Source: Polynucleobacter sp. AP-Sving-400A-A2
GTDB lineage: Bacteria; Pseudomonadota; Gammaproteobacteria; Burkholderiales; Burkholderiaceae
Reading direction: 5' to 3'
NCBI RefSeq assembly: GCF_018688155.1
Contig: NZ_CP061312.1
Coordinates: 682,001-746,000 of the forward strand
Length of the DNA: 64,000 nucleotides
Made by a program: the position numbers and the translations under genes. Every line of letters begins with the position of its first letter. Position 1 is the first letter of the stretch. The notes beneath the pieces were generated by a model. The model was not told the origin of the DNA. It saw only the letters and a program-made list of their open reading frames with translations, and ran no database searches. This document shows, piece after piece, positions 17,961 through 23,224 of the stretch.

Positions 17961-18371
17961 CTAATGCACGGAACCAAATGGATTTAGTAGCTTAACCTTA
18001 AAGCGTTTGAAGTCCTTTGTATTTCTGGTGACTACTATAAGTCTCTTTTCAATGGCTGTGGCTGCAATCATTGCATCTTCTCGTACTGTATTTGATTGAG
18101 AATGCATCAGTTTTGCCCATAAACTAAAGGCCGCTCCACTCATAGCCAAAACATTTTGATTCTTGAGAATGTCTTCTAACCAAGCATCAAGAGATTCTGC
18201 TTTATTTTGATCTTGTACTCTTGTTAGCTCTATTCCAGTCTGAATTTCTCCAATAGATACGGCAGAAATATATAGATCCTCATCTGCTACGGTGCTGAGC
18301 CACTCTAAAACTGCACCATGAGGCTTTGATTTGCGTAATTCTGAGATGACATTGGTATCTAGTAAGTACAT
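17961..18371 (-). CDS. vapC: VapC-like PIN-domain toxin
   Basis: 136 aa PIN ribonuclease. Acidic active-site residues are in place: MYLLDTNVISELRK (Asp5), ISAVSIGEIQTGIE (Glu in the second block), and the later REDAMIAATAIEKRLIVVTRNTKDFKRF block (Asp in EDAMIAA and the NTKDF end). It cleaves RNA in the cytoplasm when free of its antitoxin. It lies 8 bp downstream of the antitoxin gene. Confidence 0.9.
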   Translation of the reverse strand: MYLLDTNVISELRKSKPHGAVLEWLSTVADEDLYISAVSIGEIQTGIELTRVQDQNKAESLDAWLEDILKNQNVLAMSGAAFSLWAKLMHSQSNTVREDAMIAATAIEKRLIVVTRNTKDFKRFKVKLLNPFGSVH

Positions 18372-18379
18372 ATTGGCAA

Positions 18380-18640
18380 TTAAAGTTTGATGGGTTTGCG
18401 AGCTAAACCTTGCCCGCGCTTTGGCAGAATTAAATCTCCCTTTGCCTCTTCGGAGAGAAGAAGTGATTTAAGAGATGGTTTTGCAAGCTGCTTCAATGTA
18501 TTCCACTCCTTAATAGTGATTAGAACGGCTGTCTCATGCCCCCTTTTTGTAACTACCTGAGGCCCTTGTTCAACACAGGCGTTTAATAATTCGCTAAATT
18601 TAGCCTTAGCGTCTTGAACTGCCCAATGGTTATTTGTCAT
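18380..18640 (-). CDS. Phd/YefM-type antitoxin
   Basis: 86 aa. The N-terminal half, WAVQDAKAKFSELLNACVEQGPQVVTKRGHETAVLITIKEWNTL, is the Phd/YefM DNA-binding fold, and the C-terminal tail is the expected disordered toxin-binding region. It pairs with the downstream PIN toxin. Phd-family antitoxins combine with VapC toxins in many FitB/VapC systems. A repeated CTGACTAG sits just upstream of its start. Confidence 0.88.
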   Translation of the reverse strand: MTNNHWAVQDAKAKFSELLNACVEQGPQVVTKRGHETAVLITIKEWNTLKQLAKPSLKSLLLSEEAKGDLILPKRGQGLARKPIKL

Positions 18641-18805: not shown

Positions 18806-18895
18806 GGAAGAGTGGCAGAGCGGTTGAATGCACCAGTCTTGAAAACTGGCGAGGATGAAAGTCCTCCGTGAGTTCGAATCTCACCTCTTCCGCCA
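18806..18895 (+). tRNA. tRNA-Ser (anticodon TGA), insertion target of the adjacent element
   Basis: 90-nt type II tRNA with encoded CCA. Acceptor GGAAGAG pairs with CTCTTCC; anticodon arm CCAGT-CT-TGA-AA-ACTGG; long variable arm. The last 14 bases of the gene plus one more base are repeated at 23210-23224, which marks it as the attachment site of the integrated element. The insertion regenerates an intact 3' end, so the tRNA should remain functional. Confidence 0.97.
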
Positions 18896-18896
18896 A
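18882..18896 (+). repeat. attL, 15-bp direct repeat in the tRNA 3' end
   Basis: CACCTCTTCCGCCAA forms the end of the acceptor strand, discriminator base and CCA of tRNA-Ser(TGA), plus one base. An identical copy is at 23210-23224. Confidence 0.85.
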
Positions 18897-18903
18897 TATG
18901 TCA

Positions 18904-18936
18904 AGTAAAAAGGGGCTTAATTGCCCCTTTTACTAT
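18904..18936 (+). terminator. Terminator downstream of tRNA-Ser(TGA), supplied by the element
   Basis: AAAAGGGGC-TTAATT-GCCCCTTTT hairpin with flanking A and T runs, just inside attL. It probably ends transcription of the tRNA. Confidence 0.75.
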
Positions 18937-19087
18937 TTATTCCCACAGATGTTCCCTCGTTAGAGTTTTTTTGTGCTGTTCACTAATAGTTCTTATGGGG
19001 AGGGTAAATACAAACCGCACCTCCATAAACCTAGTTATAAAAGTTATATTATTAATCTTATTTGATAAATCCTAGGAAAATTGTTTA

Positions 19088-19813
19088 ATGGGCCACTTAA
19101 GAACCGCTAAAAATCTTTTGCATGGGTATTTTTCTACATTAGGCAGTAAAGCGAAAAAGAGTGAAATAGCCCCTCCTTTAAATGTTTCCCATTCAAAATG
19201 GATGTCCTATTTACCAAAACATTTTAATAAAAAAGGGTTGCGAATTCTTGAATTAGGGTCAAGGAATGTAACTGGCACTAATCTGAGAGAGCGATTTTCT
19301 GAAGCTACTTACATAGGTTTTGATTTTTATGGCGGAGAAAATGTAGATATTGTTGGTGATGCACATAAATTATCAACTTATTTTAATGGCCAAGAAAAGT
19401 TTGATTTGATTTTTTCCTCCGCTGTATTTGAGCATTTGCATATGCCTTGGGTTGCTGCGGTAGAAATACAAAAAATGCTCAAAGTTGGAGGGCATGTATT
19501 TATTGAAACGCATTTTTCTTTTTCATCACATGAGCGACCATGGCACTTTTTCCAGTTCTCAGATATGGGGTTAAGGGCTTTGTTTAATGATTCACTTGGC
19601 TTTGATTTGATAGATAGCGGATTGAGCAATCCAATATCAGGATTTTTTAACGGTGAATCTGATAAATACTTAAGATATTCCGCTGTAAATGAGCTTTATT
19701 GCCATAGTGAAATTTTTTGCAGAAAAAGATGTGATGTAGATAATTTTGAGTGGAATAAGGTTGAGATGGATAGCATAGTAGAGGGTACGAGATATCCTGC
19801 TCCTAAGATTTAG
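19088..19813 (+). CDS. Class I SAM-dependent methyltransferase, cargo of the element
   Basis: 241 aa. Motif I is RILELGSRNVTG (about 56-67), the acidic loop is FDFYGGENVDIVGDA, and the post-motif strand is FDLIFSSAVFEHLHMPW, a Methyltransf_11-type arrangement. Then come MLKVGGHVFIETHFSFSSHERPWHFFQFSDMGLRALF and an unassigned C-terminal part rich in aromatic residues. The SHERPWHFFQFS stretch recalls methyltransferases of cell-surface glycan clusters, but the substrate is unknown. The gene is markedly AT-rich with codon use unlike the flanking core genes. It is the only plus-strand gene of the element and the only evident cargo. Confidence 0.85.
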   Translation: MGHLRTAKNLLHGYFSTLGSKAKKSEIAPPLNVSHSKWMSYLPKHFNKKGLRILELGSRNVTGTNLRERFSEATYIGFDFYGGENVDIVGDAHKLSTYFNGQEKFDLIFSSAVFEHLHMPWVAAVEIQKMLKVGGHVFIETHFSFSSHERPWHFFQFSDMGLRALFNDSLGFDLIDSGLSNPISGFFNGESDKYLRYSAVNELYCHSEIFCRKRCDVDNFEWNKVEMDSIVEGTRYPAPKI

Positions 19814-19907
19814 TCATTCAGCCATCCTCGCCAAAATAAATAAATTCACAAGATAAATTGGGGTATTTTTGTTATGGGATGAATATTCCGATGGTGATTC
19901 TTTGGGT

Positions 19908-20102
19908 TTAATCAAACCACAGGTACTGTTTCTTAGTAGTTTGGTAGACCCTGCTACAGAAGGCTTCTTTAGACTCACCAGTCTGCCTAAAAAGCCCCTC
20001 AGATTCACTCCAAGTGCAATCAGCCCATCCCATGTAGTAGATTTTGATTGATTCAGGCTTTAGCTTATTAGTCAGCTTCTGTAGGCGACTTTTGAGCCTC
20101 AT
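19908..20102 (-). CDS. Small element protein, 64 aa
   Basis: 64 aa. The basic helical start (MRLKSRLQKLTNKLKP) is followed by a strand IKIYYMGWADC and a motif SEGLFRQTGESKEAFCSRVYQ. This basic-helix, then beta, then PGE(S/T)xExFxxRV layout is one I know from small uncharacterised phage- and island-encoded proteins. Its ATG overlaps the stop of the 79-aa gene by four bases (ATGA), strong evidence that both are translated. Function unknown. Confidence 0.65.
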   Translation of the reverse strand: MRLKSRLQKLTNKLKPESIKIYYMGWADCTWSESEGLFRQTGESKEAFCSRVYQTTKKQYLWFD

Positions 20103-20338
20103 TTAGCACCCTCTAAATGGGCTAATTCGAGGTCTGTGAGCCTTCTTTCTATTTCGGTGACTTCGTATGCTTTGAGGATGTTTATCAGCATGTAAACGAG
20201 TTTTGTACCGTTGCTGGGCAATATTTTATTGCACCGTGTTTCTCGGTAGACCTTCGCCATTTCACGCCTGATGTCTTCAGAGGTTGATAGATTGATGCGA
20301 GGGGTAGGGCCTTCACTAACTTCAGTATCTGTATACAT
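20099..20338 (-). CDS. Small element protein, 79 aa
   Basis: 79 aa, largely helical. The core SEDIRREMAKVYRETRCNKILPSNGTKLVYMLINILKAYEVTEIERRLTDLE resembles small proteins (about 80-150 aa) found next to terminase genes in many proteobacterial prophages, where they are uncharacterised. This recollection is not backed by a search. The stop overlaps the start of the 64-aa gene (ATGA). The C-terminal EIERRLTDLELAHLEG is a likely coiled coil. Confidence 0.7.
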   Translation of the reverse strand: MYTDTEVSEGPTPRINLSTSEDIRREMAKVYRETRCNKILPSNGTKLVYMLINILKAYEVTEIERRLTDLELAHLEGAK

Positions 20339-20466
20339 AAGCAGTCAATTTATTGTGCAGAGTTGTTGTGCTAGATATGGTTGTGGGAATAGATAGATTA
20401 AAGACTGATAGAGCCCTCTTTTTATAAAACATGCCACGACCTATCAGGCCCATGCCATATGTCCTG

Positions 20467-20901
20467 CTAGTGAAATACAACGCTGCTAAACCCTGTCTTT
20501 AGCAAATAGTTCAGCCAACCCTTATCTTGATAGGGTGCAATGTGAATATCGCCTTTAACCCAATCCATCTTTTTGTATGCCTTGTTAAGATGTCTTAATA
20601 TTTCATCTTTATGTAACTTGTCGTGACTTCCGATTGCAAAATGTAGGTGAGGACGTTTTTCTAATCCACCAAGCTCCATGCAGAAAATACCATTTAGCTT
20701 TGCACGACCATAGCGATATTGACGCTTAAATAAACCTTTGTTCACTAACGAAAGGTAATGGCGTCCAGTCTGCTCAAATATTTGGGGTGTTATGTAGGTT
20801 TGATAAAAGGGATGGCGTTTCTTCAGGTTCATGGTCACAGCCCAATCAAATGGCCCCTGATTATCAAGAAACCTCACTATCTCATTAATGCTAGGTTTCA
20901 C
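20467..20901 (-). CDS. HUH/YxxK-motif protein, probable rolling-circle replication initiator
   Basis: About 145 aa from the GTG at 20901; an in-frame ATG at 20982 would overlap the AlpA gene by 92 bp, so the shorter form is preferred. Three motifs are spaced as in HUH endonucleases: a strand WAVTMNLKK (motif 1-like), RPHLHFAIG (HUH metal-binding pair) and GWLNYLLKTG (YxxK, one catalytic Tyr). The protein is small for a plasmid Rep and has no helicase domain, which fits phage-satellite or filamentous-phage Gp2-like initiators. Assignment rests on these motifs, not on a search. Confidence 0.7.
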   Translation of the reverse strand: MKPSINEIVRFLDNQGPFDWAVTMNLKKRHPFYQTYITPQIFEQTGRHYLSLVNKGLFKRQYRYGRAKLNGIFCMELGGLEKRPHLHFAIGSHDKLHKDEILRHLNKAYKKMDWVKGDIHIAPYQDKGWLNYLLKTGFSSVVFH

Positions 20902-21112
20902 TTTGACCAACCTTTTGATTTTGAGGTATTGACTCAAAGCAGCTAGCAATCCATGCGTCAATGTCTGATTCTTTCCATACATTAATTGCTGGCGATAGCT
21001 TGGTTGGCTTTGGGAATGAACCTTGCCCCATTTTTAGCCAAATAGTACTTTTACCTAAGGTAGTCTTTTTTGATACATCAGCAATCCGCAGCAGTCGTAC
21101 ATTCGATTCCAT
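20891..21112 (-). CDS. AlpA-like transcriptional regulator/excisionase
   Basis: 73 aa, a winged-helix AlpA (MerR-like) DNA-binding protein: LLRIADVSKKTTLGKSTIWLKMGQGSFPKPTKLSPAINVWKESDIDAWIAS covers the whole domain (helix-turn-helix, wing KPTKLSP, last helix DIDAWI). AlpA proteins activate integrase or act as excisionase in P4-like and CP4-57-like elements. ATG 21112 is chosen because AAGGAT precedes it; an upstream TTG (21118) is possible. An 11-bp inverted repeat lies just upstream. Confidence 0.85.
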   Translation of the reverse strand: MESNVRLLRIADVSKKTTLGKSTIWLKMGQGSFPKPTKLSPAINVWKESDIDAWIASCFESIPQNQKVGQSET

Positions 21113-21120
21113 TTGCAATC

Positions 21121-21198
21121 CTTAAGGATGTATTGATAACAACTACATCTTAAGAACTTGGAATGAATATGTCTCTCACATCACATAAGTGATATGAG
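21121..21198. promoter_or_regulatory. Two inverted repeats between the 186-aa gene and alpA
   Basis: Repeat 1: CTTAAGGATGTA (21121-21132) with TACATCTTAAG (21144-21154), 11 paired bases with one bulged G. Repeat 2: CTCACATCAC (21175-21184) with GTGATATGAG (21189-21198), nine of ten paired, 4-nt loop, directly against the 186-aa gene stop. They could be AlpA sites, a terminator plus operator, or a replication origin for the HUH protein. Confidence 0.5.
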
Positions 21199-21759
21199 TT
21201 ATTTTGTAGATTTCAAACCCGTAATTTCTTTAAAGTAATTTCTAATCGCACTATCAGATACTTCAGTTGCAGGAAACTTTGCACGCATCTTTCTGCAAAA
21301 AACTTTGAAATCTCGCTGTTTTATATCAGCAATTATTTGGCGTGCAAATTCTTTTGCTTGTATATATTTTTGGCTGACTTTTGCTTTTCCTGTAGATTTT
21401 TTGACAGCATTATCTAAACTTTTTTTACCTGATTTTAGATATGCCGCCTCTAAAAACTGTTTCTGCTTAAAGGTTTCCTCGTATAAAAACAGAGTTGTTT
21501 CTAAATGAAGCTCTGTGGATGCTAATTTAATAAGCATTTCAAAGGGGTGAAGAGTGGCTAAATGAATGGCACGCTCAACAATCTTTTGACTCCTAGCTTG
21601 GTCGTCTAAAAAATCATCAGCAATGTTTTGCTGTAATAAATTGAGTTTTTGAAGGAGCAGGGCGGTGTTGTGTTCGACAAATAATTCGTCAGCACTCTTA
21701 CGTTTGGGTGCTTTGGGTTTTGGCATTTGTAACTTGCCGCCTATGTATTGTCCTGACAT
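21199..21759 (-). CDS. Element protein of unknown function, 186 aa
   Basis: 186 aa, highly basic and helical; AAGGAG lies 7 nt before the ATG. The N-terminal 25 residues are Lys/Pro-rich (MPKPKAPKRKSADELF). The middle is Leu/Gln-rich helix, then a Lys-rich linker (SGKKSLDNAVKKSTGKAKVSQK), then a C-terminal helical domain ending FPATEVSDSAIRNYFKEITG that could be a small helix-turn-helix. Position between integrase and AlpA suggests a regulator or DNA-binding accessory protein. I do not recognise the family. Confidence 0.75.
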   Translation of the reverse strand: MSGQYIGGKLQMPKPKAPKRKSADELFVEHNTALLLQKLNLLQQNIADDFLDDQARSQKIVERAIHLATLHPFEMLIKLASTELHLETTLFLYEETFKQKQFLEAAYLKSGKKSLDNAVKKSTGKAKVSQKYIQAKEFARQIIADIKQRDFKVFCRKMRAKFPATEVSDSAIRNYFKEITGLKSTK

Positions 21760-21784
21760 CGTCTGCTCCTTATGAGAACCTTGC

Positions 21785-22996
21785 TTATGCCGCTAAAAGA
21801 GTGGTTACATTATTAAACTGCTGGGAGTTGCAGAAGTCGAGCCAATCTTGCATCAGGTTGCGTCTACGGTCTAAAAGGTCTCTTCTTCGGTATGCTGCTT
21901 CCACCTTATTTTTGATGGTGTGTGCCAGAGCCATTTCGGCAACTTCTGGAGAGTGCTCGGTTTCTTCAGAAACCCAGTCCCTAAAGGTAGAGCGAAAACC
22001 ATGAACGGTAACGCTTTTATTAAGCCGCCTTAATAGCATCGGCATCGCCATATTGCTTAGGGGCTTACCGTTTCTTGAAAATAGATACTGGCTACCTTCA
22101 TCCATAGCTTTTGCAATCGCTAAAATTTCCAATGCCCGACTTGTAAGCGGCACTCGATGTTCTTTGCGTGCCTTCATGCGATTCGCTGAAATTGTCCAGA
22201 TGTCGCCATTAACTTCCGACCGAAGGCCGCCTAGCACCTCACCAGTTCTTGACGCATTAAGGATGGCAAATTCAAGTGCAAGTGCTGCAACACCCTCTGT
22301 ATTGCGTAAGCGTATTAAAAATTCAGGCAAGGCTCGGTAGGCTAGTGCAGGGTGATGTCTGACTTCCATCATCTTTTTTGGTGCTGGCAAGATTGTTTGT
22401 AGATGGCCACGCCATAAGGCTGGATTCATACCATCTCGCAATTTTCTTGTGCAAGCGGCAGCAAGAATCCATTCCAATCGTCCTCGCAGTCTAGAGGCTG
22501 TTTCGGTCTTGGATTTCCATATTGGGGTCAATATTTTCAAGATGTCGTCAGTATCAATTTCATCAAGTGCCATATCCCCAATGACCGGAAAGGCGAACTG
22601 TTCCAGCGAGTATGACCATTGAGCAGCATGCTTATCGCTAGACCACTCTGATTGCTTGTCTTCAATACATGTAAGGGCAAAGTCCCTAAAGGTTATTTTT
22701 TTACTTTCAAGGGCCTTACGCTGGGTTTTTTGAGCAAGTCTGCTTGTAAGCGGATTTTCACCTTTAGCAATCAAGGTTCTTGCTTCTTGAGCGATTTGCC
22801 GAGCCTCTTTGGGCAAAAGGTCAGGGAATGGCCCGATTCCAAGCTCGTGACGCTTGCCATTGAAGGCAAACCTCAAAAGCCAATACTTAGTTTCAGAGGG
22901 CTTATAAAGTAGTTGTAGGCCCTTTGTAACCGAATCGGTATAGCGACCATGCTTTTTTAGGTTCAGGGTGGTACGGTAATCTAGGTTTGTTGGCAT
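21785..22996 (-). CDS. int: Tyrosine recombinase/integrase of the tRNA-Ser element
   Basis: 403 aa P4/CP4-57-type integrase. The N-terminal arm-binding DUF4102-like domain includes GKRHELGIGPFPDLLPKEARQIAQEARTLIAKGENP (about 45-85). The core-binding domain follows at about 110-200. The catalytic residues are Arg in ILNASRTGEVLGG, the HxxR box VHGFRSTFRDW, the second His in LAHTIKNK and the nucleophile Tyr in VEAAYRRRD. AAAGGAAAC precedes the ATG. It lies about 210 bp from attR, as usual for tRNA-site integrases, and reads inward. Confidence 0.96.
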   Translation of the reverse strand: MPTNLDYRTTLNLKKHGRYTDSVTKGLQLLYKPSETKYWLLRFAFNGKRHELGIGPFPDLLPKEARQIAQEARTLIAKGENPLTSRLAQKTQRKALESKKITFRDFALTCIEDKQSEWSSDKHAAQWSYSLEQFAFPVIGDMALDEIDTDDILKILTPIWKSKTETASRLRGRLEWILAAACTRKLRDGMNPALWRGHLQTILPAPKKMMEVRHHPALAYRALPEFLIRLRNTEGVAALALEFAILNASRTGEVLGGLRSEVNGDIWTISANRMKARKEHRVPLTSRALEILAIAKAMDEGSQYLFSRNGKPLSNMAMPMLLRRLNKSVTVHGFRSTFRDWVSEETEHSPEVAEMALAHTIKNKVEAAYRRRDLLDRRRNLMQDWLDFCNSQQFNNVTTLLAA

Positions 22997-23209
22997 TTTG
23001 TTTCCTTTCTATATCCCACAGTTGTTCCCACCGCTAATGCTTGCAATAAGCTGGATGGGGTTAGCGACCAATGTAGGGTTTTAGAGAGGGTGATGCACTT
23101 ACAGCACTTGAGTGATACGAATTATTTTTAGAAATCAAGATAGTTTTGGGCGTCTATCCACTCATATTCCTATGCATAACCGTCTAAAGCCTACATAGGT
23201 GTGATTCGA

Positions 23210-23224
23210 CACCTCTTCCGCCAA
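23210..23224 (+). repeat. attR, 15-bp direct repeat
   Basis: CACCTCTTCCGCCAA, identical to the tRNA-Ser(TGA) 3' end. It is preceded by GATTCGA, a partial match to the T-loop, and followed by the terminator that probably once ended the tRNA. The rest of 22997-23209 holds the integrase promoter region; CGTCTA occurs at 23150-23155 and 23181-23186 and could be part of arm sites. Confidence 0.85.

What the first reader, a model, noticed from the sequence alone, without database searches (positions are those of the whole stretch)
18882..23224. Minimal integrated element with an HUH initiator, no capsid or transfer genes
Seen: exact 15-bp direct repeats at the tRNA-Ser(TGA) 3' end and next to the integrase, seven genes, one of them cargo. 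Known: P4-like satellites and IMEs use tRNA 3' ends, P4-type integrases and AlpA regulators. Inference: this 4.3-kb element excises and replicates by rolling circle, then is packaged or mobilised by a helper. The gene set integrase, 186-aa unknown, AlpA, small HUH protein, 79-aa and 64-aa pair does not match a satellite class I can name.
Basis: partly seen in the sequence, partly recalled or inferred. Interest (0 to 1): 0.75.

Follow-up and report, generated by a model that had tools for sequence, protein, structure and literature searches.

The report
Likely tiny phage satellite in Polynucleobacter
A 4.3-kb DNA element sitting in a transfer-RNA gene of a freshwater bacterium looks like a stripped-down parasite of phages that copies itself with a rolling-circle enzyme and probably steers a phage into packaging it.

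The parts
18806..18895 (+). tRNA-Ser(TGA), integration target; remains a complete tRNA gene
   Evidence: ARAGORN; Rfam RF00005
18882..18896 (+). direct repeat, att copy at the tRNA 3' end
   Evidence: only two copies in the genome
19088..19813 (+). cargo: class I SAM-dependent methyltransferase-like protein, 241 aa
   Evidence: PF13489 9.5e-9, PF08241 2.3e-7; other genes in this position in relatives
19908..20102 (-). o64, partner of o79 (ATGA overlap), no known family
   Evidence: 54-88% identical in L018-L021
20099..20338 (-). o79, helical-hairpin protein; relatives lie directly before the terminase large subunit in 4 of 9 viral contigs (3 independent); candidate small terminase or packaging-specificity protein
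20339..20466 (-). conserved non-coding block between HUH and o79, with 23-nt core CCCACAACCATATCTAGCACAAC at 20365-20387 (minus strand); candidate replication origin
20467..20901 (-). HUH nickase (Rep), probable GTG start, 144 aa (ORF open from 20982)
20891..21118 (-). AlpA-type regulator/excisionase, 75 aa
   Evidence: PF05930 6.8e-13; phrog_2790
21199..21759 (-). o186, unknown gene directly after int; occupies the iolg/icg position of PICMIs
   Evidence: gap 25 nt here, 4-nt overlap in L018-L021
21785..22996 (-). tyrosine integrase, 403 aa
   Evidence: PF22022 3.4e-26, PF13356 1.8e-15, PF00589 6.4e-8; phrog_1
22997..23209 (.). non-coding region between int and the distal att repeat
23210..23224 (+). 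direct repeat, distal att copy

Best explanation
A minimal, capsid-less phage satellite of PICMI/PICI-like build. Shown: it is integrated in the 3' end of tRNA-Ser(TGA) between 15-bp repeats, and the site is uninterrupted in other genomes. Inferred from families and neighbours: a helper phage infects and raises AlpA; AlpA with the integrase (and perhaps o186, in the place of PICMI iolg) excises the element as a circle; the HUH protein nicks an origin in the conserved block just behind its own gene and drives rolling-circle replication, giving head-to-tail concatemers; o79 (with o64), or C11 or the GGRK protein in sister elements, acts as a small-terminase-like adapter that brings the helper's large terminase to satellite DNA, so that several copies fill a normal-size helper head. 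After injection the integrase inserts one copy into the tRNA gene. The methyltransferase is exchangeable cargo. The 14 genomes with an HUH match gave no Terminase_6N match, so the helper is more likely an incoming virulent phage than a resident prophage.
Against: No excised circle, concatemer, virion DNA or helper was seen. The HUH element was not found in viral contigs, phages or plasmids. The small-terminase role of o79 rests on gene position: its model is a plain helical hairpin without a telling PDB match, no PHROG or Pfam names it, and in 5 of 9 viral contigs it lies behind a tape-measure gene instead. Several sister elements are damaged: L019 o79 is frameshifted, L024 int is broken and rearranged, and L027, the only GGRK element, is a remnant with int and HUH fragments. 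AlpA was found in 5 of 11; L019, L020, L022 and L024 have another small gene (C6) there, L026 and L027 none. L023, L025 and L026 have no slot gene with a shown TerL neighbour; an HGG-type protein of L026 gave no viral relative. The 23-nt core is absent from the HUH elements with diverged HUH (L022-L031) and could be a promoter or operator. PF03237, PF03135 and PF05707 each cover only part of their class.
Confidence: 0.64

Rival explanations
1. Mobilizable element (IME): HUH acts as a relaxase at an oriT, and a conjugative plasmid or ICE moves the excised circle.
For: HUH nickases include relaxases; tyrosine integrase at a tRNA 3' end is usual for IMEs (established knowledge).
Against: No VirB4-type match (PF03135) in 14 of 14 genomes with an HUH match; no hit in 72,556 plasmid records; the slot genes have phage-packaging neighbours.
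Confidence: 0.08
2. Satellite of a filamentous (ssDNA) phage, like RS1 or TLC: HUH makes single strands that a helper inovirus packages.
For: Nearest Pfam model is the G2P-type Rep PF23343 (E 0.0012 to 0.00012, below cut-off); small size.
Against: No Zot match (PF05707) in 14 of 14 genomes (the family does not cover all inoviruses); slot-gene relatives lie in tailed-phage contigs with TerL, portal and head genes.
Confidence: 0.07
3. A tRNA-site genomic islet that integrates and excises but transfers only passively (generalised transduction, competence), with HUH giving transient replication and o79/o64 serving regulation or phage defence.
For: No helper or virion evidence; o79 and o64 have no named family; Terminase_6N not found in the 14 genomes; some sister elements are damaged.
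Against: o79 and o64 keep 78-88% and 63-86% DNA identity while int differs, and the slot is filled by unrelated TerL-neighbour genes in other elements, which a passive islet does not explain.
Confidence: 0.16
4. Decayed prophage or P4-type remnant that lost its larger genes.
For: Small size; AlpA; integrase with P4-type domains; remnants exist in the family (L027).
Against: A compact gene order recurs at several tRNA sites, with open int and HUH frames in the window, L018-L022 and L025; all seven window ORFs are open.
Confidence: 0.05

Closest known systems
PICMI (phage-inducible chromosomal minimalist islands, Vibrionaceae; PMC10803314)
   Same: int, then an int-overlapping or contiguous unknown gene, alpA, replication gene, few further genes; small (PICMI115 6.1 kb, 4.3 kb here); flanking direct repeats (17 bp in PICMI115, 15 bp here); no capsid genes; replication there consistent with rolling circle, packaging as concatemer
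   Different: HUH nickase instead of primase; tRNA genes instead of fis; TerL-neighbour slot gene (the word terminase does not occur in the PICMI text); Betaproteobacteria; helper unknown
Gram-negative PICI (PMC6092414, PMC10111431)
   Same: int and AlpA at one end, replication zone, origin downstream of the replication gene, some carry terS, some use tRNA sites
   Different: Primase-type Pri-Rep and 12-15 kb there; HUH and about 4 kb here; interference genes not recognised here
SaPI with its own TerS (recalled; described in passages of PMC10690885 and PMC6092414)
   Same: A satellite-carried small terminase redirects the helper's packaging
   Different: Here a TerS-like function is inferred from position only; no capsid-size gene and no repressor recognised
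P4 and P4-like satellites (recalled)
   Same: tRNA site, tyrosine integrase, AlpA/Vis-type regulator
   Different: No relative of the alpha primase-helicase, sid, delta or psu recognised by Pfam or PHROGs
Inovirus satellites RS1/TLC (recalled)
   Same: Small, rolling-circle initiator, no capsid
   Different: Tyrosine integrase at tRNA rather than XerCD/dif; no Zot match in the 14 genomes tested

Membership tests
PICMI | int, alpA and prim present together | tested here: not met
   int and AlpA present, no primase domain matched in any of the seven proteins; HUH stands in its place
PICMI | integration next to fis | tested here: not met
   tRNA-Ser(TGA); relatives in tRNA-Ser/Asn
PICMI | unknown gene overlapping (iolg) or contiguous with (icg) int | tested here: met
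   o186 25 nt after int; 4-nt overlap in L018-L021, 0 nt in L022, 11 nt gap in L025
PICMI | small size, no capsid-remodelling or structural genes | tested here: met
   4343 bp; none recognised
PICMI | induction by and concatemer packaging in a virulent helper | not testable with these tools
   needs phages and carriers
Gram-negative PICI | integrase plus AlpA-type regulator at one end | tested here: met
Gram-negative PICI | primase-type replication module (Pri-Rep) | tested here: not met
   HUH nickase, no primase match
Gram-negative PICI | size about 12-15 kb | tested here: not met
   4.3 kb
Gram-negative PICI | no phage structural or lytic genes | tested here: met
   none recognised
HUH endonuclease (Rep type) | H-hydrophobic-H motif and catalytic Tyr in Y-x-x-K on an HUH fold | tested here: met
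HUH endonuclease (Rep type) | nicks an origin | not testable with these tools
   candidate block 20339-20466 only
Small terminase subunit (o79) | gene directly before terL in phages | tested here: inconclusive
   4 of 9 viral contigs (3 independent), 5 of 9 elsewhere
Small terminase subunit (o79) | TerS fold | tested here: inconclusive
P4-like satellite | alpha primase-helicase and capsid-size genes | tested here: not met
   no such family matched among the seven proteins; o64, o79 and o186 match no family
Integrative mobilizable element | relaxase/oriT used with a helper conjugation system | tested here: inconclusive
   HUH present but not a named relaxase; VirB4-type match in 0 of 14 genomes

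The most novel reading that the evidence does not exclude
A group of minimal tailed-phage satellites in one genus that replicate by an HUH (AAV-Rep-like fold) rolling-circle initiator instead of a primase, and that switch helper phages by exchanging unrelated small-terminase-type cassettes (o79/o64, C11, GGRK) in one fixed slot beside the origin.
Probability: 0.42. Interest if true: 0.78.

Novelty: new variant of a known kind. Interest (0 to 1): 0.62.

Why it matters
[quoted passage not shown] prim was also part of their search model. A 4.3-kb satellite with a nickase initiator would directly link rolling-circle replication to the concatemers that such satellites package. A slot in which unrelated TerL-neighbour genes replace one another would make helper choice a testable, modular trait. 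Polynucleobacter is an abundant, streamlined freshwater genus (established knowledge); the 14 genomes with an HUH match showed none of the three phage or conjugation marker families tested, so satellites may be a main route of gene flow there (inference).

Tried and rejected
IME and inovirus-satellite readings were tested by searching the 14 genomes with an HUH match for VirB4-type (0 of 14), Zot (0 of 14) and Terminase_6N (0 of 14); each family covers only part of its class. Searches that found nothing: HUH in viral contigs, phages, plasmids; o79 or relatives in phages, plasmids, viral contigs with a single sequence (26); HGG-type protein of L026 in viral contigs (95). PDB sequence profiles of HUH, o79 and C11 gave only chance-level rows (97-99). 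o79 and C11 are not related by profile comparison. PADLOC gave one weak row, for o79 (E 0.0047), not followed. No TerS-named chain appeared among the 50 rows shown for o79, which excludes nothing. The idea that a resident Polynucleobacter prophage carries o79 or C11 beside TerL was dropped: the genus loci seen (L142-L161; output cut, so L151 and L152 were seen in part) looked by eye like satellites without an evident TerL. In print: searches (8 papers; none) listed no paper on Polynucleobacter satellites; the ten of 141 listed do not name Polynucleobacter; others (none; one, on helicases) listed none on HUH or rolling-circle tailed-phage satellites. The library lacks most subscription papers. 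On recheck I found L024 int broken and L027 a remnant, and lowered the main confidence from 0.66 to 0.64 and the novel case from 0.45 to 0.42, raising the passive-islet rival from 0.14 to 0.16.

Papers: PMC10803314 outline, passages and sections 6, 10, 12; PMC6092414, PMC10111431, PMC11389934 and PMC10690885 passages only; others search listing only.
Full report
Observation. The 15-bp repeat, the tRNA-Ser(TGA) target and seven genes are present as described. The repeat occurs exactly twice in the 2.03-Mb genome. A query of the two joined flanks gave one match across the junction in 14 of 186 genus genomes (G066, G031, G012, G136, G019, G133, G007, G119, G004, G013, G113, G122, G134, G109; 78-90% identity) and split matches on one contig, 0.9-29.5 kb apart, in 28, the window's own genome included (listing truncated, and what fills most of the gaps was not examined). 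The tRNA 3' end thus looks like an insertion hotspot. Different elements use it in G034 (L025; same antitoxin, toxin and FAD-gene flank) and G096 (L157; a flank gene with the same N-terminus and length as the window's FAD gene).

Host.

The family. HUH relatives at E <= 0.001 are in 14 of 186 genus genomes; 11, the own one included, are strong (7.5e-12 or better), and three (G007, G154, G171), like a second match in G034, are remote and lie in other contexts. In the order, a profile found the own genome and one weak match (1.6e-5) among 379. Of the 11 strong elements, 8 show a direct repeat with a tRNA 3' end: tRNA-Ser(TGA) in the window and L025, tRNA-Ser(GCT) in L018 and L021, tRNA-Asn(GTT) in L019, L020, L022 and L024; sizes 4.1-9.6 kb. 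L023 is cut by its contig; L026 and L027 showed no tRNA. Int is open in the window, L018-L022, L025 and L026; it is broken and rearranged in L024, and L027 is a remnant with fragments of int and HUH. In the place of AlpA stands an AlpA protein in the window, L018, L021, L023 and L025, another small gene (C6) in L019, L020, L022 and L024, and nothing recognised in L026 and L027.

Modularity. Against the window, DNA identity in L018-L021 is 70-80% for HUH, 75-85% for the non-coding block behind it, 78-88% for o79 and 63-86% for o64, but 61-69% for int and 62-67% for AlpA (such gapped global values are close to what unrelated DNA gives). L019 and L020 have another int class and no match to the window's int or AlpA. 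HUH-block-o79-o64 thus travels as a unit between integration modules. The gene after int overlaps it by 4 nt in L018-L021, as PICMI iolg does.

Candidate origin. The 23-nt core CCCACAACCATATCYAGCACAAC (L021 differs at two further positions) lies between HUH and o79 in 5 of 5 such elements and in no other locus scanned, neither in o79 elements without HUH nor in elements with a more diverged HUH. It follows this HUH type, not o79. In Gram-negative PICIs the origin is downstream of the primase gene (PMC10111431 passage).

The slot behind HUH. o79 occupies it in five elements (frameshifted in L019), C11 in L022 and L024, a GGRK-type protein in the remnant L027; L023 has none; L025 (one gene further on) and L026 (about 1.4 kb further on) have HGG-type proteins. 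C11: 13 IMG/VR loci, in 13 of 13 a large ORF follows at once; 10 were submitted and 10 of 10 are terminase large subunit (L036, L037, L039 not submitted); in two GenBank phages TerL follows directly or after one small ORF. o79: nine viral contigs over. In L099 and its near copy L100, in L101 and in L200 TerL follows directly, then portal, with a head gene beyond in L099 and L101 (L100 itself and the L099 portal not submitted to PHROGs); in L094-L098 o79 lies behind a tape-measure gene (L095 by PHROGs; the other four by similarity to it). GGRK: one viral contig, ATGA overlap with TerL (PF03237 4e-25). o79 and C11 are unrelated and never share one of 35 loci, loci that were chosen for HUH, o79 or C11. 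o79 is wider than HUH: 21 of 186 genus genomes and 22 of 399 in the order, mostly beside other replication genes.

Mechanism. Shown: integration, uninterrupted sites elsewhere, family structure, HUH motif and fold, slot exchange. Inferred: AlpA-driven excision, rolling-circle concatemers, TerS-like redirection, helper phage. PICMI is the precedent for excision by int, iolg and alpA on infection and for concatemer packaging.

Classification. It works like a PICMI but fails two of its defining features (prim, fis), so it is not filed as one; it fails Gram-negative PICI on replication module and size. Verdict: a new variant of the phage-satellite kind. Interest 0.62: a specialist would find the HUH initiator and the exchangeable TerL-neighbour slot surprising, while the general kind is known.

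Noticed in passing
L094-L098 (IMG/VR contigs) and L148:4068-5708: o79-bearing elements that also carry a tail tape-measure gene (L095 and L148 by PHROGs; the others by similarity); in L095-L097 a tRNA-Ser lies about 0.9-1.5 kb beyond o79. They may be satellites that influence the helper's tail, or cut prophages.
   Followed up: partly
L139:6396-6818 (minus): A DUF5681 protein (PF18932 1.3e-10) sits at the o79-like place of an element with an integrase-like ORF (by eye) in another order of the class, perhaps a fourth exchangeable slot family.
   Followed up: partly
window 17961-18640: Toxin-antitoxin-like pair (136 aa and 86 aa) directly left of the tRNA-Ser; relatives (73% and 88% identity) lie at the same place in L025, so it is part of the host flank rather than of the element.
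   Followed up: partly
G134:C1 (L142 and L022): One genome holds two elements with C11-type slot genes, one beside tRNA-Met with a different gene in the place of HUH (att repeats not checked) and one in tRNA-Asn with HUH.
   Followed up: partly
L024:6666-11277: Element with a broken, rearranged int whose cargo includes three metabolic-looking ORFs (303, 292 and 161 aa), by eye like a dehydrogenase, a sugar lactonase and a gluconate kinase (not searched).
   Followed up: partly
L028, L030: Remote HUH relatives lie between two integrase-like ORFs, with tRNA-Leu and tRNA-Lys genes in the fetched stretches and shared neighbours, a different element type.
   Followed up: no
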